Notes under the pieces: model-generated
Told to the model about the DNA's origin: nothing
What the model saw: the letters and a program-made list of their open reading frames with translations, nothing else
Database searches by the model: none
In this document: positions 2,312 through 22,523 of the stretch, piece after piece
How the letters are laid out: the number at the start of each line of letters is the position of its first letter
Numbering within the stretch: the first letter of the stretch is position 1
Made by a program: the position numbers and the translations under genes
Source of the DNA: Streptomyces bottropensis ATCC 25435
GTDB lineage: Bacteria > Actinomycetota > Actinomycetes > Streptomycetales > Streptomycetaceae
Assembly: GCF_000383595.1 (NCBI RefSeq)
Contig: NZ_KB911581.1
Location: 3,106,265 to 3,170,264, forward strand
DNA length: 64,000 nucleotides
Direction: 5' to 3'

Positions 2312-4135
2312 CTACGGCTCGAACCGCACCACCTGCGGGTCGTGGTCGCTGATCTGGTCGTTGAACTCCGAGTTGATGTGCACACTGTCGTACGTGAACC
2401 CGGTGGCGCGCCGGACCGAGCGGCTGACCAGGATCTGGTCGAGGACCTGGGCGTTGCCCTGGAAGACGTACGAGTAACGCTCCCGCTTCGGCAGCGACTT
2501 GATCGCCGACCACAGGACGCCGTCCTTCTCCAGCAGCTCGGCGGTGTCCGAGAACTCGAAGTCGTTGATGTCGCCGAGGGCGATGACGGAGGCCTTCTTG
2601 TCCTTCGCCAGCACCTGCTTGACGAAGGTGTTCACGGCCGTCGCCTGCAGGTGGCGCTGGGTCTCCGAGCTGCGCTTCGGCGGCTGGAACTCCGAGTGCA
2701 GCGCCTGGTCCCCGCCCTTGGACGCGAAGTGGTTCGCGATCACGAAGACGGGCTTGCCGCGGAAGGAGAACTCGCCGACGAGCGGCTTGCGGCTGTTCGT
2801 CCAGGCGGCGTTCGCCGGGTCGATCCGGCCGGGGGACACCGTCAGCCGCGCCTCGCCGTCCGCCTTCGTCACGCCGGCGGCGGTCGTGGCGTCGCCGCCC
2901 GCGCGGTCGGTGAAGGAGACCCGCGCGGGGTTGAACAGGAAGACCTGGCGGATGTTGCCGCCGGGCTCACCGCCGTCCGCGAGGTTCACCGGGTCGATGG
3001 AGCGCCAGTCGTACGCCGGACCGCCGGCTGCCGTGATCGCGTCGATCAGCTTCTTCACGGTCTTGTCGGCGGCGACCGTACCGTCGTTGGTGGCGCCGTT
3101 GTTGTCCTGGATCTCCTCCAGGGCCAGGATGTCGGGCGACTGCAGGTGGTGCACGATCGCGGCCGCGTGGTCCGCGAAGGAGGCGTCCGAGGGGTCCAGG
3201 TTCTCGACGTTGTACGTCGCCACCGCGAGCTCGCCGCGCGCCTGCTTGGCGGTCGTCTCGCGCTCCAGACCGCCCTGCTTGAGCGTGCCGATGCGGTTGG
3301 CGACGAGCGTGTAGCCGCCGAACTGGTTGTAGTCCAACGGGCCGGCCGTCGTGCCCTTGAGGACGTCACCGACGTTCGCCTTCGGGAAGTCGGCGACCGC
3401 GCCCAGCGACTGGATCTGCAGCCGGCCGGTGTTCTGCGAGGTGTAGGAGTCGTACAGCGCGCCACCACGGCGGTTGTCGTTCTCCCGGGGCTTCACCGTG
3501 ACCCACAGCTCGGTGAACGGGTCGCTGGCGCCGACCACGCGCGTGTCGGCGACCTGGACGTTCATGCCCTCCAGGGACTCGTAGTAGTCCAGGGCGTACG
3601 TGGCCGGGGCGAGCTTGAGGCCCTTGATCGAGCCGGCGGCGGCGGGGTCGCCGGCCGGGGCGTACTTCTTCGGCACGGACTTGGTGTCGATGACCTTCGC
3701 GGCCGGGACGGCGTTGCCCGTGGAGACGACCGTGATCGTCGGGCGGGAGATCTGCGTCACGGACTGGTTTCCGGACGAAGTGCCGCCCGGTATGAACTCG
3801 CCGACCGTGCCGGCGACCGTCACCGCGTCGCCCACCGAGACCGTCGGCCGGGAGCTGGTGAAGACGAAGACGCCCTCGCTCGTGGCGGGGTTGGAGTCCG
3901 CCTCGGGGTCCTGGATCCAGAAGCCGCGCGAGCCGTAGGTGCGCACGCCCGTGACGATGCCCTGGACCCCGGCGACCTGCTGGCCGGTGAGCGGGGACGT
4001 CCGGGTGGTGCCCTGGATGTCGTGGATGCGTAGCGAGTCCGCCTCGGCGGGCGAGGTCAGGACCACGGCGGACACCGTGGAGCAGATGGTGGCGACGGTC
4101 AGCGCGCCGATGCGCGCGGTTCTCTTGCTCGGCAA
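2312..4135 (-). CDS. Secreted ExeM/NucH-type nuclease (endonuclease/exonuclease/phosphatase fold)
   Basis: A protein of 607 residues with a Sec-type signal peptide (basic start, hydrophobic stretch, cleavage near residue 32). Residues about 35-250 form the OB-like and spacer region found in extracellular nucleases of the ExeM/NucH group. Residues about 300-605 form the EEP catalytic domain, with ATYNVENL, LALEEIQD (metal-binding Glu), NHFASKGGD, GDINDFEFSD and a terminal SDHDP, matching the Asn/Glu/Asp/His set of DNase I-like enzymes. It probably degrades extracellular DNA for nucleotides and phosphate, which fits the PhoX-type phosphatase nearby. It is monocistronic on the minus strand. No PHO box was found upstream. 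Confidence 0.9.
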   Translation of the reverse strand: MPSKRTARIGALTVATICSTVSAVVLTSPAEADSLRIHDIQGTTRTSPLTGQQVAGVQGIVTGVRTYGSRGFWIQDPEADSNPATSEGVFVFTSSRPTVSVGDAVTVAGTVGEFIPGGTSSGNQSVTQISRPTITVVSTGNAVPAAKVIDTKSVPKKYAPAGDPAAAGSIKGLKLAPATYALDYYESLEGMNVQVADTRVVGASDPFTELWVTVKPRENDNRRGGALYDSYTSQNTGRLQIQSLGAVADFPKANVGDVLKGTTAGPLDYNQFGGYTLVANRIGTLKQGGLERETTAKQARGELAVATYNVENLDPSDASFADHAAAIVHHLQSPDILALEEIQDNNGATNDGTVAADKTVKKLIDAITAAGGPAYDWRSIDPVNLADGGEPGGNIRQVFLFNPARVSFTDRAGGDATTAAGVTKADGEARLTVSPGRIDPANAAWTNSRKPLVGEFSFRGKPVFVIANHFASKGGDQALHSEFQPPKRSSETQRHLQATAVNTFVKQVLAKDKKASVIALGDINDFEFSDTAELLEKDGVLWSAIKSLPKRERYSYVFQGNAQVLDQILVSRSVRRATGFTYDSVHINSEFNDQISDHDPQVVRFEP

Positions 4136-6100: not shown

Positions 6101-6260
6101 TTCGGGGGCGCGTAGCTCGGGGGTGCGGGCGCGTTGGTGGGTGCGGGTGGGTGGGGGCTGGTCGCGCAGTTCCTCGCGCCCCTGAAGGGCAGGGGGTGTG
6201 CCCTGTGCGTGGGTGGGTGCGGCTCCGGTGGGGCTTCTCGCGCAGTTCCCCGCGCCCCTG

Positions 6261-6288
6261 AAAAGCAGGGGCTGCGCCCCGTGCTTTT
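6261..6288 (+). terminator. Hairpin terminator carrying a dispersed GC-rich element
   Basis: AAAAGCA plus GGGGC (6261-6272) pairs with GCCCC, a bulged G and TGCTTTT (6276-6288), giving a 12-bp stem with a three-base loop and a terminal T run. It follows the Gly-Pro-Asp protein. The preceding CGCGCAGTTCCCCGCGCCCC (6239-6258) is one copy of a short element repeated elsewhere in the window, and a variant lies at 6166-6186. Confidence 0.6.
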
Positions 6289-6297
6289 CCCCCTCGC

Positions 6298-6374
6298 GGT
6301 CCCCTCGCGGTCCCCTCGCGGTCCCCTCGCGGTCCCCTCGCGGTCCCCTCGCGGTCCCCTCGCGGTCCCCTCGC
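6298..6374. repeat. 11-bp tandem repeat array, seven units
   Basis: Seven perfect copies of GGTCCCCTCGC run from 6298 to 6374, with a partial copy before them. They lie in a roughly 500-bp intergenic space (6101-6604) that otherwise holds dispersed palindromes and the PHO-box-like repeat. The period is close to one helical turn. The array keeps frames open on both strands, which creates spurious long ORFs through the region. Confidence 0.9.
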
Positions 6375-6526
6375 GGGCGTGGGGGACTGTGCGAGAAGCC
6401 CCGCCGGAGCCGGTAGTCGTCCGTGGGCCGGATGTTCGAGCTGTGAGGCGCGAGCGGGGTGGAGGGGTGCGGACCCTTGGTGGTTCATCGAAGACGGGGG
6501 GCGTCCTTCTCTCCGTGTTCAGGCCG

Positions 6527-6544
6527 TGTTCAGGCGCGGGCGCC
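6527..6544 (+). promoter_or_regulatory. PHO-box-like direct repeat upstream of the PhoX-type phosphatase
   Basis: GTTCAGG occurs at 6527-6533 and again at 6538-6544, exactly 11 bp apart. This is the unit length and phasing of PhoP-binding PHO boxes in Streptomyces, whose conserved 7-mer is close to GTTCACC. An isolated GTTCATC is also present at 6483. The repeat ends 60 bp before the phosphatase ATG, an appropriate place for a phosphate-starvation activator site. Five of seven positions match, so this is a candidate only. Confidence 0.45.
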
Positions 6545-6604
6545 ACCGTGGCGCGACACCTCGGGTCCGCCCCCACGGTCCTCCACCGCCACCCAGGAGA
6601 CAGC

Positions 6605-8062
6605 ATGCCGCTCACCCGCAGGGACTTCGCCAGACGATCCGCGGTCACCGGAGCCGGCGTCGCGCTGGCCGGCAGCGTGGGCGCGCTCGCCACCGCGCCG
6701 AACGCCCTCGCGGCGACCGACACCGACCCGGGCTCGGAGGCCGGCCTCGAAAAATCCGGGAACGGGGCGGACCGACTCGGCTACGGCCCCCTCCTGCCCG
6801 ACCCCCAGGGCATCCTCGCGCTGCCCGCCGGATTCAAGTACCGGATCCTCACGTACAGCGGCAGGACCAAGCTGGAGTCGGGCGAGTTCACCCCCGGCAA
6901 GCACGACGGCACCGCCGCCTTCCCCGGCCCCCGCGGCACCACCCTCCTCGTCAACAACCACGAGCTGAAGGGACCCCGGGCCAACTGGGAGTTCCCGGTG
7001 CCGCTCACCGAAGGGCTCGTGTACGACCCGGCGGCGGCCGGCGGTTGCACGGTGGTGGAGGTGCGGCCCGACGGCCGGGTCGCCGAGTGGGTCGGCATCG
7101 CGGGCACGTCCACCAACTGCGCGGGCGGCAGCACCCCGTGGGGCACCTGGCTCACCTGTGAGGAGAACTCCGACCGGGCCGGCGTCAACGGCATGACCAA
7201 GGACCACGGCTACGTCTTCGAGGTCGACCCCTGCGACCGCCGCGCCAACCGCGCCCCGAAGCCGCTGAAGTTCTTCGGCCGCTACGACCACGAGGCCGTC
7301 GTCATCGACCCCAGGCGCGGCCACGCCTACCTCACCGAGGACGCGGCCTCCCCCAACGGCCTCTTCTTCCGCTGGACCCCGCCCAAGGGATTCGAGTACG
7401 GCCCCGGCAGGTTCCGCACGCTCGCCGACGACGCGGGCGTCCTCCAGGCACCCCGGTGCTACGACTCCGGCGGCCGCTTCGTCGACGACCTGTCCCGCGC
7501 CACGCGCATCGGCACGGTGTACGGCGTCGACTGGGTCGACGTGCCCGACCGGGACGCCAGAACCGTCGCCGTGCGCAAGCAGTTCGCCGACACCGAGATC
7601 ACCCGCGCCCGCAAGCTGGAGGGCATGTGGTGGGGCGACGGCGGCACCTACGTCGTCTCCTCCTACGCCCGTTCGGAGAGCCCCGTCCAGCACGACGGCC
7701 AGGTCTGGTTCTACGACCCCAAGCGCCGCACCCTGACCCTGAAGGTCCTGCTCGGCGTCAACCCCGATCCGTCCGTCGACGGCGCCCTCGACGGCCCCGA
7801 CAACATCACCGTCTCCCCGTACGGCGGCATCGTCCTCGCCGAGGACGGCGAGGGGATCTCGCATCTGTTCGGCGCCACCGACAGCGGCCGTACGTACCCG
7901 ATCGCGCGCAACGACCTGAACATCGGCACCGAGGAGGAGCCGGAGTACAGCGAGTTCGCCGGCGTCACCTTCTCACCCGACGGAAAGACCCTGTACGCCA
8001 ACATCCAGACGCCGGGCATTCTGCTCGCGATCACAGGTCCCTGGAAGCGGCAGAAGCGATAG
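6605..8062 (+). CDS. PhoX-type (DUF839) Tat-secreted phosphatase
   Basis: A protein of 485 residues. The ATG at 6605 follows AGGAGA and starts a twin-arginine signal (LTRRDFARRS, residues 4-13, then an Ala/Gly-rich hydrophobic stretch to about 40). The frame is open further upstream only because of the tandem repeat. The body is a beta-propeller-like PhoX/DUF839 domain with VNNHEL, WLTCEEN (Glu/Asn metal ligands), the YDHEAVVID region and EDGEG near the C-terminus, as expected for Ca/Fe-dependent alkaline phosphatases. It probably releases phosphate from organic esters outside the cell. A PHO-box-like repeat upstream suggests PhoP control. Confidence 0.88.
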   Translation: MPLTRRDFARRSAVTGAGVALAGSVGALATAPNALAATDTDPGSEAGLEKSGNGADRLGYGPLLPDPQGILALPAGFKYRILTYSGRTKLESGEFTPGKHDGTAAFPGPRGTTLLVNNHELKGPRANWEFPVPLTEGLVYDPAAAGGCTVVEVRPDGRVAEWVGIAGTSTNCAGGSTPWGTWLTCEENSDRAGVNGMTKDHGYVFEVDPCDRRANRAPKPLKFFGRYDHEAVVIDPRRGHAYLTEDAASPNGLFFRWTPPKGFEYGPGRFRTLADDAGVLQAPRCYDSGGRFVDDLSRATRIGTVYGVDWVDVPDRDARTVAVRKQFADTEITRARKLEGMWWGDGGTYVVSSYARSESPVQHDGQVWFYDPKRRTLTLKVLLGVNPDPSVDGALDGPDNITVSPYGGIVLAEDGEGISHLFGATDSGRTYPIARNDLNIGTEEEPEYSEFAGVTFSPDGKTLYANIQTPGILLAITGPWKRQKR

Positions 8063-8083
8063 CGGGAAGCGGTGGTTAATTCA

Positions 8084-8114
8084 TTGGCCCGGCCCGTGGT
8101 ACGCCTCCTAGAGT
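8084..8114 (+). promoter_or_regulatory. Promoter of the Y RNA / Ro60 locus
   Basis: TTGGCC at 8084-8089 and TAGAGT at 8109-8114 form -35 and -10 hexamers separated by 19 bp. Initiation about six bases past the -10 would fall at 8119-8121, exactly the first paired base of the first RNA's terminal helix. That coincidence is the main support. No comparable promoter is seen before the second RNA. Confidence 0.55.
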
Positions 8115-8119
8115 GATGC

Positions 8120-8260
8120 TGTCCAGGTGCGAAGGCAGGACCTACTTCCACTCATAATGGGGCGGCCGCGGGTTCGAGTCCCGCCACCGGTACCAACACG
8201 CCGGTGTAGCTCAGGGGTTAGAGCACCTACGTCGGTTCCGCCGGCTTCGATCTCTGGACA
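8120..8260 (+). ncRNA. Y RNA-like RNA 1 (YrlA class) with a permuted tRNA-like module
   Basis: Terminal helix: 8120-8126 pairs with 8254-8260, then a 3x4 internal loop (GTG 8127-8129 / ATCT 8250-8253), then 8130-8134 (CGAAG) pairs with 8245-8249 (CTTCG). Inside lies a tRNA-like module in permuted order. The T-arm at 8168-8184 has a GCGGG/CCCGC stem and a TTCGAGT loop. The acceptor 3' strand CACCGGT (8185-8191) is followed by ACCA (8192-8195). The acceptor 5' strand GCCGGTG (8200-8206) forms 7 bp with it. The D-arm GCTC-AGGGGTTA-GAGC is at 8209-8224. The anticodon-arm position is replaced by the terminal helix. This is the known plan of bacterial Y RNAs, which bind Ro60 through that helix. Confidence 0.85.
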
Positions 8261-8298
8261 CCCAAAGCTTCACGCACCTCCCGGTGCGATCCGATCTC

Positions 8299-8489
8299 GG
8301 GAGGCGCGGCAGATGGTGGGTGCCCGGTGCGCAGGCAGCGGATACTTCGGGAACTGGTGGGGAGAGATCCTCGTGCGGGTTCGAATCCCGTCATCGACTC
8401 CTGGTCGGTGTGGCGGAAGGGAAGACGCGCCAGTTATAAGCACCGCCGCCGACTTCGACCTCGGGCACCCTCCATCTGCCGTGCCTCCC
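8299..8489 (+). ncRNA. Y RNA-like RNA 2 with long terminal helix and permuted tRNA-like module
   Basis: 8299-8326 pairs with 8462-8489 (26 Watson-Crick pairs, one G-U, one T-T mismatch). Next comes a 3x4 loop GTG (8327-8329) / ACCT (8458-8461), then 8330-8334 against 8453-8457 with one mismatch. GGTGCG, AGGCAG and TACTTC repeat those of RNA 1 at exactly 200-bp offset. The T-arm is 8375-8391 (loop TTCGAAT). The acceptor strands 8392-8398 and 8404-8410 pair over 7 bp and are closed by TCCTG. The D-arm at about 8412-8431 resembles a class II (Leu-like) tRNA. The encoded CCA of RNA 1 is not kept. It probably comes from the same transcript as RNA 1 and ends 80 bp before the Ro60 start codon. Confidence 0.85.
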
Positions 8490-8562
8490 CCGAACCAGAA
8501 TTCAGAATTCAGGAACAGGGATTCCACGCACGAAGTGTGATGTGCCGGGGAATTCGGGGGAG
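8485..8562 (+). promoter_or_regulatory. Potential Shine-Dalgarno sequestering helix before the Ro60 gene
   Basis: CTCCCCCGAA at 8485-8494 is a perfect complement of TTCGGGGGAG at 8553-8562, which contains the ribosome-binding site for the ATG at 8569. The first five bases of the upstream arm (8485-8489) also belong to the 3' strand of RNA 2's terminal helix, so the two pairings are mutually exclusive. RNA 2 folding or removal could therefore influence Ro60 translation. The pairing is directly visible; the regulatory role is inferred. Confidence 0.5.
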
Positions 8563-8568
8563 TTCATC

Positions 8569-10155
8569 ATGGCGCGATTCAACACGAAGGCCGGCAAGGC
8601 CCAGCCCACCTCCCGTGTCACCTCCACGGGCCGTGTGCTCCGTACGTACGAGGGCGGTCGCGGACGCGAGCGGGACGAGCGCTCCGAGCTCTTTCTGCTG
8701 TCGATCGCCAACTTCGTCGCGCAGAAGACCTTCTACGAGAGCGGTGAGGACCGGGACGACCGGTTCGCCGCGCTGGTGCGCCGGCTCGCCGTCACCGACC
8801 CGGCGTGGACGGCCGGCCTGCTCGGCTGGCTGCGCGGCGAGGGCAACCTCCGTACGGCCTCCCTCGTGGGCGCCGCCGAGTACGTGAAGGCTCGGCTCGA
8901 CGCGGGCGTCAGCGACGGGCCCACCAACCGCCAGGTGGTCGCCTCCGTGCTGCGGCGCCCCGACGAGCCCGGCGAACTGCTCGCCTACTGGACCTCCCGG
9001 TACGGCCGTACCCTCCCCAAGCCGGTGAAGCGGGGCGTCGCCGACGCCGTACGACGGCTCTACAGCCCCAAGGCGCTGCTGAAGTACGACACCGCGTCCA
9101 AGGGCTACCGCTTCGGCGACATCCTGAACCTGGTGCACGCGGCGCCGGACCCGGACAAGCCGTGGCAGGGGGACCTGTTCCAGTACGCCCTCGACCGGCG
9201 CCACAACCCGGACACGGCCGTCGTGCCCAGGTCGCTGCCCATGCTCGCCGCGCACCGTGACCTCATGGAGCTGCGGCCCGCCAAGCGGCGCAGGGTCGTG
9301 ACCGGGGCGGGCGGTGCCCAGCGTCTCGCGGACGCGGGCATCACCTGGGAGGCGCTGGCGGGCTGGCTGCAGGGGCCGATGGACAAGGCGGCCTGGGAGG
9401 CCGTCATTCCGTCCATGGGCGCCATGGCGCTGACCCGGAACCTGCGCAACTTCGACGAGGCGGGCGTCTCGGACGAGGTCGCGGCCCGGGTGGCGGCTCG
9501 GATCAGCGACCCGGCGGAGGTCGCGCGGTCGCGGCAGTTCCCGTTCCGCTACCTCTCGGCGTACCGCCACGCGCCCTCGCTGCGCTGGGCGTACCCGCTG
9601 GAGCAGGCGCTCGGTCACTCGCTGGCCAACGTGCCCGCGCTGCCCGGCCGGACCCTGGTCCTGGTCGACCGCTCGGGCTCGATGTTCTGCTCCCGGCTGA
9701 CCGACCGCTCGTCGCTCACCTACGCCGACGCGGCCGCGATCTTCGGTACGGCGCTCGCGCTGCGGGCGGCGGACGCGGACCTCGTCGAGTTCGGGAGCAC
9801 GAGCAGGGTGGTGAAGTTCGGCGAGGGCGAGTCCGTGCTGAAGATCATCGGCCGGTTCGGCGACCTCGGCGGCACCGACACCACCGAGGCCGTCCGCCGC
9901 CACTACCGCCGGCACGACCGGGTGCTGATCGTCACCGACGAGCAGGCCGGCTACAGCCACTACGGCGACCCGACCGAGCAGATCCCGGCCCAGGTGCCCG
10001 TCTACACCTGGAACCTCGCCGGGTACCGGGCGGGCCACGGCCCCTCCGGCACGGCGAACCGCCACACCTTCGGCGGCCTCTCCGACGCGGCCTTCCGCAT
10101 GGTGCCGCTGCTGGAGGGGGCCCGGAACGCCGAGTGGCCGTGGGCGGTCGAGTGA
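8569..10155 (+). CDS. rsr: TROVE-domain Ro60 orthologue (Y RNA-binding protein, Rsr-like)
   Basis: A protein of 528 residues. The ATG at 8569 has a GGGGGAG site. Residues about 20-350 are the TROVE HEAT-repeat ring that holds misfolded RNA in its cavity and Y RNA on its outer face; FLLSIANFVAQKTFYESG and PRSLPMLAAHRDLMEL are typical helices. Residues about 355-528 are a von Willebrand factor A domain with an intact MIDAS start (D367-x-S369-x-S371 in VDRSGSM), GGTDTTEA and VTDEQ. In Deinococcus the orthologue works with Y RNA and PNPase in RNA decay and stress survival. Two Y RNA-like genes directly upstream strongly support the call. No rtcA or rtcB RNA-repair gene adjoins it. Confidence 0.95.
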   Translation: MARFNTKAGKAQPTSRVTSTGRVLRTYEGGRGRERDERSELFLLSIANFVAQKTFYESGEDRDDRFAALVRRLAVTDPAWTAGLLGWLRGEGNLRTASLVGAAEYVKARLDAGVSDGPTNRQVVASVLRRPDEPGELLAYWTSRYGRTLPKPVKRGVADAVRRLYSPKALLKYDTASKGYRFGDILNLVHAAPDPDKPWQGDLFQYALDRRHNPDTAVVPRSLPMLAAHRDLMELRPAKRRRVVTGAGGAQRLADAGITWEALAGWLQGPMDKAAWEAVIPSMGAMALTRNLRNFDEAGVSDEVAARVAARISDPAEVARSRQFPFRYLSAYRHAPSLRWAYPLEQALGHSLANVPALPGRTLVLVDRSGSMFCSRLTDRSSLTYADAAAIFGTALALRAADADLVEFGSTSRVVKFGEGESVLKIIGRFGDLGGTDTTEAVRRHYRRHDRVLIVTDEQAGYSHYGDPTEQIPAQVPVYTWNLAGYRAGHGPSGTANRHTFGGLSDAAFRMVPLLEGARNAEWPWAVE

Positions 10156-10194
10156 CGCCGGTCCGCGGACCGGCGGAGCACGAGAACGGGGGGT

Positions 10195-10234
10195 GAGTGT
10201 GGCCCGTGTCCCAGTGGGGACACGGGCCACACTC
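10195..10234 (+). terminator. Strong terminator after the Ro60 gene
   Basis: A perfect 18-bp stem (10195-10212 with 10217-10234) closed by AGTG is followed by TTGTT. A second perfect dyad lies just after the Ro60 stop, at 10156-10164 with 10167-10175. Together they isolate the Ro60 locus from the GntR gene. Confidence 0.85.
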
Positions 10235-10271
10235 TTGTTCGGGGTCGTACTGGCATCTAACATTTCAGTTC

Positions 10272-11144
10272 ATGGAGGCCATACGACCCGTCGCGCGCAC
10301 CCTGCTGAGGGACCGCGCCTACCAAGCCATCCGGGACGCCATCGTGGCCGGAGAGATCGAGCCGGGCGCGGTGGTGCGGGACGCCGAGTTCGCGGAGCTG
10401 CTCGGACTGTCCCGGGCGCCGGTGCGGGAGGCGTTCTCCCGGCTGGTGGACGAAGGGCTGCTGGAGAGCAAGCCGCAGAGCTACACCCGGGTCACGGCCG
10501 TCGTCGCCTCCGATGTGCGGGACGCCGCCGCCGTGGTCGGGGCCATGCACGAGCTGGTCGCCCGGACCGCCGTGCCCCGGCTGTTCGCGGCGGACGTCGA
10601 GATGATGCGCTCGGCCAACGAGCGGTTCGCGGCGGCCGTCCGCACCGGCGACGTCGACGCGGCCCTGGTCGCCGACGACGCACTGCACGACGTGCTCGTC
10701 CGGGTGAGCGGCAACCGCGCGGCCGCCGCCACCGTCGCCCGCTACACCCCGCTCATCCGCCGGCTGGAGCGACGGCGCTTCGGCGAGGGCGGCAACTGCC
10801 GCTCGGCCGGACTGCACGAGCGGCTGATCGCGGCCTGCGCGGCCGGTGACACGGACGAGGCGGTCCGCGTCACGGCGGAGATCTGGCGCGGCCTGGCCGC
10901 ACTCGCCGACGAGCCGGACGCCGAGCCCGATGCCGATCGGGACGCCGGTCGTAGCGCCGAGCCGGAAGAAGAGCCGGTCACGAAGCCGGTCGCGGCGTCG
11001 GGTGAGGGGTCGGGGCCGGAGTCCGCGGAGGGCGCGGGCGGCGCCGCATCCGCGCGCCCGCCCACCCACGAGTCCACCCGCGAGCCCACCCACCAGCCCG
11101 CCCCCGAACCCGGCGACGCGCCCGTGCGCCGAGCGGATCACTGA
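10272..11144 (+). CDS. GntR-family (FadR-like) regulator, probable regulator of ACC deaminase
   Basis: A protein of 290 residues. The ATG at 10272 begins [20 protein letters not shown]; further upstream the frame runs through the terminator and is not coding. Residues 10-75 are a GntR winged helix ([18 protein letters not shown] is the recognition helix). Residues about 85-215 are an all-helical FCD-type effector domain. The last 75 residues are a highly charged Asp/Glu/Pro/Ser tail unusual for the family and probably disordered. It lies 97 bp upstream of, and in the same direction as, the ACC deaminase gene. Control of that gene is inferred from position. Confidence 0.85.
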
Positions 11145-21360: not shown

Positions 21361-22523
21361 AGGCGTCGACGTTCGTCTACCCGTGGGACGTCAACGGGGA
21401 TCCGGCCGCCGCCGAACGCATCGCGGGGCTCGGGGTACGGCAGGCGACGCTCGCCTCCGCCTACCACTCCACCCGCGCGCTCACCCCCCGCCACCCCCGG
21501 CAGCGCATCGTCACCGCCGAACACGCGGCCGTGCTGTACCCGCCGGGTGCGCGGTGGGAGGGCCGTACGCTGCGGCCGTACGCGGCAGGGGACTGGGCGT
21601 TCGGCGACGCGTTCGGCGAGGCGGCCACCGCGCTCGCGCACGCCGGACTCGAAGTGCACACCTGGGTGGTCCTGGCGCACAACTCCCGCCTGGGCGCCGA
21701 GCATCCCTCGACCTCCGTGGTCAACGCCTACGGGGACCGGTATCCGTGGGCCCCCTGTGTCGCGCAGCCGGACACCCGGGAGTACCTGGTCGATCTGGCG
21801 GTGGAGGCGGCGGTCCGGCCCGGCGCGCGCGGCACCGAGCTGGAGTCGCTCGGCTGGTACGGCCTCGCCCACCTCCACGCCCACGACAAGACGGGCGGGG
21901 TCGGCCTCGGCGACGCCGGCCAGTACCTGATGTCGCTGTGCTTCTGCGGCACCTGCCGCGACGGGTACGCCGGCGCCGGAGAGGACCCCGACGAGCTGGC
22001 GGCGGCCGTACGCGCGGCGCTGGAACCGCTGTGGCGGGGCGAGACCGTCGACGAGGGCTGGCCGGCGGTGGAGAAACTCCTCGGGACCGAGAAGGCGACG
22101 GCCACGCGGGTGTGGCGCGACGCGACCTCCCGCTCGCTCCAGGAGGAGGCCGTCGGGGCCGTACGGGCCGCCGCGCCCGCCGGGTTCCAGGTGCTGCTGC
22201 ACGCGGACCCGGTGACGTACCACTGCGGGGCGAACCCCGGGGTGGACCCCGAGCACATCCTCGGCGTGGCCGACGGTGTCGTCGTGCCCTGCGCGGGCGG
22301 GCCGGGGCTGCTGCCGGCGTTCGCGAAGGCCGGGGCGGGCGGGGCCGTGCTGGCCGCCAACTTCGGCATCGTGTCGGGCATGGGCGGCAGTCCGGTGACC
22401 CTGGCCGAGGACGCGGGGCGGGCGGTGGAGCTGGGGGCGACCGAACTCCGGCTCTACCACGCGGGGTTGGCCTCGGACCAGGATCTGGCGGCGGTACGGG
22501 AGGCGTTGACGGCGGTGGGGTGA
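21357..22523 (+). CDS. Unrecognised, glycosidase-like TIM-barrel protein co-transcribed with kdgD
   Basis: A protein of 388 residues starting at a GTG that overlaps the kdgD stop, so translation is coupled. There is no signal peptide, so it should be cytoplasmic. Segments such as HTWVVLAHNSRLG, NAYGDRYPWAPC, DTREYLVDLAVEA and LMSLCFCGTCRDGYAG recall the barrel strands of hypothetical glycosyl-hydrolase-like families, in which a Cys-x-x-Cys patch follows the strand-4 acid. I cannot name the family or assign catalytic residues. Its operon position suggests action on a uronide or aldarate-related compound, which is inference only. Confidence 0.7.
   Translation: MKASTFVYPWDVNGDPAAAERIAGLGVRQATLASAYHSTRALTPRHPRQRIVTAEHAAVLYPPGARWEGRTLRPYAAGDWAFGDAFGEAATALAHAGLEVHTWVVLAHNSRLGAEHPSTSVVNAYGDRYPWAPCVAQPDTREYLVDLAVEAAVRPGARGTELESLGWYGLAHLHAHDKTGGVGLGDAGQYLMSLCFCGTCRDGYAGAGEDPDELAAAVRAALEPLWRGETVDEGWPAVEKLLGTEKATATRVWRDATSRSLQEEAVGAVRAAAPAGFQVLLHADPVTYHCGANPGVDPEHILGVADGVVVPCAGGPGLLPAFAKAGAGGAVLAANFGIVSGMGGSPVTLAEDAGRAVELGATELRLYHAGLASDQDLAAVREALTAVG

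What the first reader, a model, noticed from the sequence alone, without database searches (positions are those of the whole stretch)
8120..10155. Two Y RNA-like genes precede a Ro60 (TROVE) gene: a complete Ro ribonucleoprotein locus
Seen: two consecutive RNAs, each with a terminal helix and a tRNA-like core, then a TROVE-vWA gene with intact MIDAS, all on one strand and closed by a strong terminator. Known: bacterial Ro60 (Rsr) binds Y RNAs, and YrlA-class Y RNAs carry tRNA-like modules. Inference: this is a streptomycete Ro RNP with two divergent guide or gating RNAs in one transcript. Two different Y RNAs per Ro gene raises the question of distinct partners or substrates.
Basis: partly seen in the sequence, partly recalled or inferred. 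Interest (0 to 1): 0.92.

Follow-up and report, generated by a model that had tools for sequence, protein, structure and literature searches.

The report
Ro locus with swappable tRNA-mimic RNAs
A Streptomyces gene for the RNA-binding ring protein Ro60 is preceded by two small RNAs that imitate rearranged tRNAs, and across relatives the imitation tRNA part of one of them is exchanged like a cartridge while the holder and the neighbouring genes stay put.

Summary
At 8121-8480 lie two YrlA-like Y RNAs with circularly permuted tRNA heads, followed by a Ro60/Rsr gene (8569-10155) whose model matches Ro60 structures end to end. They are not tRNA genes, and neither reaches Rfam's YrlA cut-off.

(1) Most relatives carry a third, headless Y RNA between the two; here it survives as a 35-nt hairpin (8273-8307). 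(2) The second RNA's head is a permuted class II tRNA with a long variable arm and a Leu-like D-arm half; many relatives carry a class I head on the same stem. Class flips at least 14 times on a tree of the flanking genes. In 22 close pairs of different class the head diverges most (65% identity, against 89% in same-class pairs). (3) Some Streptomyces carry unlinked Y RNAs with Glu-like or Ser-like heads; one rsr-linked RNA bears the Glu-like head, another the first RNA's head.

Hits of the Y RNA model and TROVE genes co-occur: both in 136, one alone in 17, neither in 142 of 295 genomes.

Best reading: Ro RNP scaffold RNAs with interchangeable tRNA-mimic adaptors. Binding, processing and partner are untested.

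The parts
8109..8114 (+). -10-like TAGAGT; a start about 7 nt on would fall at the first base of the Y1 stem (8121)
   Evidence: TANNNT at one fixed distance within each group: 62 of 64 Y1-first loci, 13 of 16 Y2-first, 9 of 11 stand-alone and 4 of 4 metK-priA Y RNAs; no consensus sigma-70 promoter found by the scan
8121..8259 (+). Y1: YrlA-like Y RNA. Lower stem 8121-8126/8254-8259, core GGTGCGAAGGC, upper stem 8134-8142/8234-8242, TACTTC 8143-8148, then permuted class I tRNA head: T arm 8168-8184, acceptor 8185-8191/8200-8206, D arm 8209-8224
8192..8199 (+). loop ACCAACAC that joins the two acceptor strands of Y1 (an encoded ACCA here and in a few relatives; many others read ACAACG)
8273..8307 (+). 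remnant of the middle Y RNA (Y2): lower stem kept as a hairpin, upper stem and TACTTC loop gone
   Evidence: R1 39.0 bits; full Y2 in 66 of 81 loci, remnant in 15
8308..8480 (+). Y3: Y RNA with permuted class II tRNA head. Outer stem 8308-8314/8474-8480, lower 8318-8326/8462-8470, upper 8334-8341/8443-8450, TACTTC 8343-8348
   Evidence: (116.6 bits to R2, which this RNA helped to build)
8352..8435 (+). Y3 head in tRNA terms: anticodon stem 8352-8357/8430-8435 (loop opened into the Y stem), variable arm 8359-8372, T arm 8376-8390, acceptor 8392-8398/8404-8410 capped by TCCTG, D arm 8413-8428
8569..10155 (+). rsr: Ro60 orthologue, TROVE plus vWA, 528 aa
10195..10234 (+). 18-bp hairpin after rsr, terminator-like with a weak T-run

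Best explanation
The locus encodes a Ro ribonucleoprotein. SHOWN by sequence: a Ro60-fold protein (predicted) preceded by RNAs with a common stem and core (GGTGCGNAGGC ... TACTTC ... closing stem) topped by a tRNA rebuilt in permuted order: T arm, acceptor closed by a short loop, D arm, with the anticodon loop opened into the Y stem. INFERRED: the array starts at a promoter whose -10 is 8109-8114 and runs into rsr; nucleases free the Y RNAs; the common stem and core is gripped by the Rsr ring, as the lower stem is in Deinococcus, Salmonella and Mycobacterium smegmatis; the tRNA-like head is an adaptor that docks a tRNA-recognising partner or a nuclease such as PNPase and gates what reaches it. 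SHOWN: the 5' side of stem and core is nearly invariant while the Y3 head is replaced between neighbouring lineages (class I or class II; in two more distant loci a Glu-like head or a Y1-type head), so the unit exchanged is the head. INFERRED: different heads bring different partners or substrates to the same Ro protein.
For: Ro60 fold: model pLDDT 81.5; top matches are all Ro60/TROVE, including 9kop Z 27.4, human Ro60 9nen Z 22.9 and D. radiodurans Rsr 2nvo Z 22.5, 433-446 residues aligned in ranks 1-4. Y3 pairs: class II 17 of 49 pairs with double changes, 87 cells against 29.1 shuffled; class I 7 of 37 pairs, 16 cells against 4.3; 0 of 500 shuffles as high on these two measures. Acceptor 7 of 7 pairs in 197 of 207 parsed heads, the loop length being chosen for best pairing. 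Co-occurrence in 295 Streptomyces genomes: both 136, model hit only 6, TROVE only 11, neither 142. Among 396 actinobacterial genomes no non-Streptomyces hit exceeds 40.9 bits, against 86 or more in each of the 8 TROVE-holding Streptomyces and none in 4 Streptomyces without TROVE. Constraint: Y1 mean identity 0.909 against 0.746 at rsr third positions, higher in all 1069 pairs counted, of 1830 possible. Head exchange: fewest class changes 16 on the joined-flank tree, at least 14 forced by starred branches; 22 close pairs of different class: left 0.917, head 0.650, right 0.827; 89 same-class pairs 0.946, 0.892, 0.840 (pairs share members).
Against: No RNA or binding data. Y1 alone shows almost no covariation and folds only slightly better than shuffles. 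Y2 covariation is weak: 4 pairs with double changes (0 of 500 shuffles), but 12 cells against 9.1 with 88 of 500 as high. Class I: a slide of +1 gives 15 double-change cells against 16, and the anticodon stem pairs in only 52.9% of cells. The Y3 outer stem pairs in only 68.6% of cells. The Leu likeness of the window's Y3 rests on its 5' (D-arm) half, 23.0 against 14.2 for the best non-Leu; its 3' half is nearer Ser(tga) 20.2 and Asp 18.2 than Leu(gag) 13.8, so the head is a mosaic or has drifted. Six genomes have a model hit and no TROVE match: pieces of rsr remain in G513, G557 and G572; in G668 I see only the last residues of Rsr by eye, which tblastn did not report; in G581 and G547 none was found. 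Eleven TROVE genomes have no hit (stricter filters were in force). The co-occurrence p-value ignores phylogeny. No partner was examined.
Confidence: 0.8

Rival explanations
1. The RNAs act in cis: a structured 5' leader through which Rsr, or a tRNA-binding factor, controls rsr expression, with no trans-acting role.
For: They lie directly upstream of rsr on the same strand with a promoter-like element before the first; no terminator-like site was found in 8000-10300. Lower stems persist as hairpins where heads or cores are lost (Y2 remnant in 15 of 81 loci; Y3 reduced in L019 and L068).
Against: The same kind of RNA occurs alone with its own -10-like element away from rsr, and between metK and priA. 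Y3 remains in G668 next to what looks, by eye, like the last residues of a deleted rsr.
Confidence: 0.12
2. They are broken or permuted tRNA genes (relics of a tRNA array, or genes that still make a tRNA).
For: In Y3 all tRNA helices are present and only the anticodon loop is missing; Y3's D-arm half is nearest tRNA-Leu(gag); adjacent tRNA pairs can mimic the order and probably account for most hits of about 26-40 bits in other genomes.
Against: No tRNA gene called here. The anticodon loop is opened into a conserved 8-9 bp stem, the acceptor is closed by a short loop, the order is kept in 207 parsed heads, pairs covary, and the RNAs track TROVE.
Confidence: 0.04
3. Ro RNP RNAs as in the best explanation (so not exclusive of it), but the head exchange is neutral: any tRNA-like fold will do, and recombination between the near-invariant stems shuffles heads at no benefit.
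For: 5' stem and core columns are 0.987-0.998 conserved, good ground for homologous exchange; the heads keep the same fold.
Against: Y1's head hardly varies in type (80 of 80 RNAs recognised as Y1 have a GTAGCTC-type D arm) though its stem is at least as conserved; only Y3 varies.
Confidence: 0.4

Closest known systems
YrlA (Rfam RF02553; Salmonella rsr-yrlBA-rtcBA; PDB 6CU1)
   Same: Y stem that carries a tRNA-like domain with D, T and acceptor arms, circularly permuted relative to tRNA (PMC8394870 and PMC11472068, passages seen); encoded beside rsr; two Y RNAs per rsr (PMC7790460, passages). Y1 matches model positions 24-84 at E 4.3e-5.
   Different: Y1 scores 32.6 against a gathering score of 69 and Y3 gets no YrlA match up to E 10. 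The neighbours identified here are PhoX and GntR-family genes; rtcBA was not searched for. Y3 adds a long variable arm and a 6-bp anticodon stem; heads are exchanged among relatives.
Deinococcus radiodurans Y RNA, Rsr and PNPase (RYPER)
   Same: Ro60-fold protein (2nvo Z 22.5) with adjacent Y RNAs.
   Different: Whether the Streptomyces RNAs tether PNPase is unknown; the D. radiodurans Y RNA sequence was not compared here.
Mycobacterium smegmatis Yrl RNA and Rsr
   Same: Actinobacterial; Rsr binds the lower stem of Yrl RNA (review PMC4726728, passage seen).
   Different: No mycobacterial rsr locus was aligned here; mycobacteriophage Whirlwind has a gene annotated as RNA-binding, vWF-like, followed by a YrlA-like RNA (38.3 bits, below gathering).

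Membership tests
Ro60/Rsr (TROVE) protein family | TROVE domain over the curated Pfam cut-off | tested here: met
   PF05731 48.6 bits, cut-off 23; only profile positions 290-351 of 442 align in the best stretch
Ro60/Rsr (TROVE) protein family | Ro60 fold: helical-repeat ring closed by a vWA domain | tested here: met
   Predicted model aligned over 433-446 residues to 9kop, 9l5y, 9nen and 2nvo at Z 22.5-27.4; Foldseek E 3.8e-18 to 8.4e-14 for ranks 1-7, all Ro60/TROVE
Ro60/Rsr (TROVE) protein family | vWA MIDAS residues DxSxS ... T ... D | tested here: met
   D367, S369, S371, D457 invariant and T436 nearly invariant in 16 rows, two at 25-26% identity
Ro60/Rsr (TROVE) protein family | binds Y RNA | not testable with these tools
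   needs pull-down or a structure
YrlA (Rfam RF02553) | score at or above the gathering threshold (69 bits) | tested here: not met
   Y1 32.6 bits; Y3 none up to E 10. Not filed as an Rfam YrlA member, only as YrlA-like
YrlA (Rfam RF02553) | order Y stem, T arm, acceptor, D arm, Y stem (permuted tRNA) | tested here: met
   permutation relative to tRNA known from 6CU1 (PMC11472068, passages)
YrlA (Rfam RF02553) | encoded next to rsr | tested here: met
   all 80 fetched loci and the window have at least one such RNA upstream of rsr; stand-alone copies also exist
YrlA (Rfam RF02553) | tRNA-type modifications (D by DusA, pseudouridine by TruB) | not testable with these tools
   needs RNA; T-loop TTCGA and D-arm sequences are present
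transfer RNA | recognised by a tRNA gene finder, contiguous anticodon arm | tested here: not met
   ARAGORN reports only tRNA-Arg at 21539 in the window; Rfam tRNA match 19.6 bits, cut-off 29

The most novel reading that the evidence does not exclude
Streptomyces Ro RNPs use cartridge-like Y RNAs: one Ro-binding stem on which tRNA mimics of different likeness (Leu-like, Glu-like, Ser-like D arms, class I types; Y1 nearest Met on its 3' half) are repeatedly exchanged and kept as coexisting alleles. This could be because the heads act as decoys or sensors for tRNA-targeting nucleases, toxins or phage, or because each head recruits a different tRNA-processing enzyme to the Ro ring. Which tRNA is mimicked would then be a selected trait of a non-coding RNA that takes no part in decoding.
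Probability: 0.2. Interest if true: 0.88.

Novelty: new variant of a known kind. Interest (0 to 1): 0.72.

Why it matters
What bacterial Y RNA heads do beyond the Deinococcus case is open. A natural series of close lineages that differ chiefly in the tRNA-mimic head gives direct comparisons: nearly the same Ro protein and stem with a different head. If the head decides which RNAs or enzymes join the Ro ring, partners can be read off by pull-down in laboratory streptomycetes. The stand-alone and metK-priA copies, which no Rfam family matched in the eight loci scanned, widen the set of Y RNA genes to look for. My ten searches of the held open-access library showed nothing on Streptomyces Y RNAs or on exchange of heads in the rows listed (some lists were partial: one search showed 15 of 110 papers); the search for Y RNA, Ro60, bacteria and Streptomyces together found 0 papers. 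The key primary papers and reviews (PMC4201824, PMC6047535, PMC6281776, PMC10870794) are not held, so part of this may already be in print.

Tried and rejected
Plain tRNA genes: rejected. Rfam membership in YrlA: tested, not reached. Y RNAs in the own genome besides Y1 and Y3: none convincing (one 25.1-bit hit beside a tRNA gene); the metK-priA interval of the own genome has no Y core. R2 hits outside Streptomyces (40.9 bits or less): many cover only model positions 26-114, which fits two adjacent tRNA genes, though I did not inspect them one by one; the 40.9-bit hit in G050 lies just upstream of its TROVE gene. A plasmid match in Mycolicibacterium proved to be a tRNA array whose copy at 2972-3044 resembles the Y1 head. 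First structure model of Rsr, from near-identical sequences, was poor (pLDDT 55.6); a wider alignment gave 81.5. Consensus promoter and terminator scans found nothing.

Sample limits: loci L001-L080 are the best 80 of 269 relatives found, so biased towards near kin of this Rsr. Rows left out of alignments: A1 holds 45 of 48 class II Y3 (without L007, L028, L053), A3 61 of 64 Y1 (without L007, L063, L072), A4 61 of 66 Y2 (without L007, L008, L063, L064, L072), A2 all 31. L051 ends 293 nt upstream of rsr, so its lack of Y1 is not evidence. L068 was classed by eye, and L053 (GTGGCGAAA) was counted as class II by eye. In one search pairs with rsr identity under 0.78 by position were skipped (1069 of 1830 Y1, 1137 of 1830 Y2, 532 of 990 class II and 335 of 465 class I pairs remained). 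In one search the pattern labels L195 and L200 'Leu' though their nearest D arm is Ser; isotype there uses positions 8-29 only. In one search one of 31 class I heads was not parsed. The pattern has a chance level: read backwards it matches in 29 of 295 genomes (my count of the control columns) against 139. The 30 flanks read were my choice among its hits. R2 also catches some headless Y RNAs (L218). The first Y3 parsers failed or mis-parsed and were replaced.
Full report
WHAT IS THERE. The window lies in a Streptomyces genome (G000, 8.96 Mb, one contig); on the rsr tree its nearest row is S. scabiei 87.22 (L059). A Ro60/Rsr gene, ATG 8569 to 10155, has a TROVE hit of 48.6 bits. A predicted model (pLDDT 81.5, pTM 0.74) matches solved Ro60 proteins over most of its length (433-446 of 528 residues in ranks 1-4): a TROVE crystal structure (9kop, Z 27.4), the phage phiLo Ro60 (Z 24.7), human Ro60 (9nen, Z 22.9) and Deinococcus Rsr (2nvo, Z 22.5); below the Ro60 rows come vWA domains alone at Z 12.8 and less. 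It is the only TROVE match of the genome at E up to 0.001.

THE TWO RNAS. Y1 (8121-8259) and Y3 (8308-8480) share one plan: lower stem, the core GGTGCGNAGGC, an 8-9 bp upper stem with one mismatch that is never paired in Y1 or class II Y3, TACTTC, then a tRNA in permuted order (T arm, acceptor, short loop, acceptor, D arm), and back down. In Y3 the head has canonical tRNA spacing: 6-bp anticodon stem, 5-bp variable arm, T arm, 7-bp acceptor directly on the T arm, two bases, D arm, one base, anticodon stem. The acceptor is closed by five bases and the anticodon loop is opened into the Y stem. Neither RNA is called as a tRNA. Rfam's YrlA model hits Y1 at 32.6 bits (gathering score 69) and not Y3. 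Circular permutation relative to tRNA is published for Salmonella YrlA, 6CU1 (PMC11472068, passages). Against the host's own tRNAs, the window's Y3 is mixed: its 5' half (acceptor, D arm) is nearest Leu(gag) at 23.0 (best non-Leu 14.2), its 3' half nearest Ser(tga) at 20.2, with Leu(gag) at 13.8; Y1's 5' half is nearest Val, Arg and His (20.0-20.5), its 3' half Met(cat) at 22.8.

COMPARATIVE TEST. For 80 relatives (best 80 of 269) plus the window I parsed the upstream region. Y1 is present in 64 of 81, a full middle RNA Y2 (77-82 nt, no tRNA head) in 66, a Y2 reduced to a hairpin in 15 (the window among them, 8273-8307), Y3 in 79, and a reduced Y3 in 2; 47 of 81 hold all three in full. So the 'two RNAs' of this window are most simply a three-RNA array that has lost most of its middle member. 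Covariation is strong in Y3 class II (17 of 49 pairs with double changes; cells 87 against 29.1 shuffled, 0 of 500; best slid control 24) and present in class I (7 of 37 pairs, 16 cells against 4.3, 0 of 500; but a +1 slide also gives 15 cells). It is weak in Y2 and almost untestable in the near-invariant Y1. Y1 is more conserved than rsr third positions in all 1069 pairs counted (of 1830); Y2 in 1070 of 1137, Y3 class II in 402 of 532 and class I in 304 of 335.

HEAD EXCHANGE. Y3 carries a class I head in 31 loci, a class II head in 48 and none in 2. All 47 class II heads so labelled by pattern, and L053, have a D arm nearest tRNA-Leu among the host tRNAs fetched (D-arm region only). On the rsr tree the class needs at least 16 changes (79 classed rows); on trees of the upstream DNA, of rsr and of both joined (75 classed rows) 17, 17 and 16. 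Starred branches of the joined tree force at least 14 changes for class I and 15 for class II; these are quick trees without bootstraps, and one row, L056, has a long branch there. The exchange is local: 22 pairs with rsr identity above 0.90 and different class have mean identity 0.917 left of the head, 0.650 in it and 0.827 right of it; 89 same-class pairs have 0.946, 0.892, 0.840 (pairs share members, so they are not independent). The clearest case is L015 and L020: rsr 97.0%, left 97.6%, right 92.6%, head 68.5%. Some same-class pairs also have divergent heads (L028 and L038, 58.2%).

OUTSIDE THE LOCUS. The core pattern GGTGCGNNGGYN6TACTTC occurs in 139 of 295 Streptomyces genomes, the pattern read backwards in 29. 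Besides rsr-linked arrays, 30 flanks that I chose among the hits showed two further kinds. One (12 of the 30 stretches) is a stand-alone RNA with a tRNA-Glu-like head: nearest D arm Glu in 11 of 12 distinct heads of this type, one of these being the rsr-linked L219. It has TANNNT before the stem and, by eye, a GC-rich inverted repeat after it. The other (7 of the 30) lies between metK and priA, a headless RNA, one with a Ser-like or, in L197, Leu-like class II head, or both. No Rfam family matched these RNAs in the eight loci scanned at E up to 0.01, while the known Streptomyces-metK RNA was found in five of them. Two rsr-linked Y3 RNAs have borrowed heads: L219's is 0.904 identical to a stand-alone Glu-like head and at most 0.705 to the Y1 and Y3 heads compared; L220's is 0.847 to Y1 heads and at most 0.756 to Y3 heads.

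LINK TO RO. A covariance model of tRNA-headed Y RNAs (R2; it also catches some headless ones) hits 142 of 295 Streptomyces genomes at E up to 1e-6, and TROVE hits 147; both 136, R2 only 6, TROVE only 11, neither 142 (odds ratio 293, Fisher p 7e-62, not corrected for kinship). Of the six R2-only genomes, G513, G557 and G572 keep decayed or cut-down rsr pieces; in G668 the DNA just after Y3 reads like the last residues of Rsr by eye, though tblastn reported nothing; none was found in G581 (whole-genome search) or near the G547 RNA. In 396 actinobacterial genomes the 8 Streptomyces with TROVE all have hits of 86 bits or more, the 4 Streptomyces without TROVE have none, and outside Streptomyces nothing exceeds 40.9 bits.

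HOW IT MOST LIKELY WORKS. Established knowledge: bacterial Rsr binds the lower stem of Y RNAs, and in Deinococcus the Y RNA tethers Rsr to PNPase and gates its substrates (PMC4726728 and PMC7790460, passages). By anatomy the constant stem and core should be the Ro side and the tRNA mimic the partner side. Inference: a start at about 8121, one leader into rsr, processing of Y1 and Y3, Rsr loading on the core, head as adaptor. [quoted passage not shown] Heads that change their tRNA likeness fit a decoy, a sensor or an adaptor with changing partners, but neutral exchange between conserved stems explains the same data, and I give it 0.4.

VERDICT. A real Ro RNP locus, a new variant of the YrlA kind rather than an Rfam member. 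RNA-level proof is missing.

Noticed in passing
L194, L195, L197, L198, L200, L207, L216 (metK-priA interval of other Streptomyces): Y RNAs between metK and priA: a headless one, one with a Ser-like or Leu-like class II head, or both; absent in this window's genome.
   Followed up: partly
L188-L193, L196, L212-L215, L217: Stand-alone Y RNA genes with tRNA-Glu-like heads, a -10-like element and, by eye, a GC-rich inverted repeat just downstream; no rsr match within the 5.5-kb stretches.
   Followed up: partly
L194, L198, L216 downstream of the Y RNAs: The stretch before priA reads TGTCAGTGG-N7-TAAGAAT or similar, which resembles the RecA-NDp/PafBC DNA-damage promoter motif as I recall it (no call names the motif).
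   Followed up: no
L211 (G513), L285 (G572), L288 (G557), L281 (G668, by eye): rsr decayed or cut down while Y RNAs remain (in G557 the Y RNA hit is at another place).
   Followed up: partly
L290 2498-2562 (mycobacteriophage Whirlwind): YrlA-like RNA (38.3 bits, below gathering) just after a phage gene annotated as RNA-binding, von Willebrand factor-like.
   Followed up: partly
window 8192-8199: The Y1 acceptor loop begins with an encoded ACCA here and in a few relatives, as a tRNA 3' end would; many relatives have ACAACG.
   Followed up: no
window 6134-8062: PhoX-family gene upstream on the same strand (327.5 bits).
   Followed up: no
L084/L093 (G023) and other genomes with two TROVE matches: Some Streptomyces carry a second TROVE gene elsewhere.
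   Followed up: no
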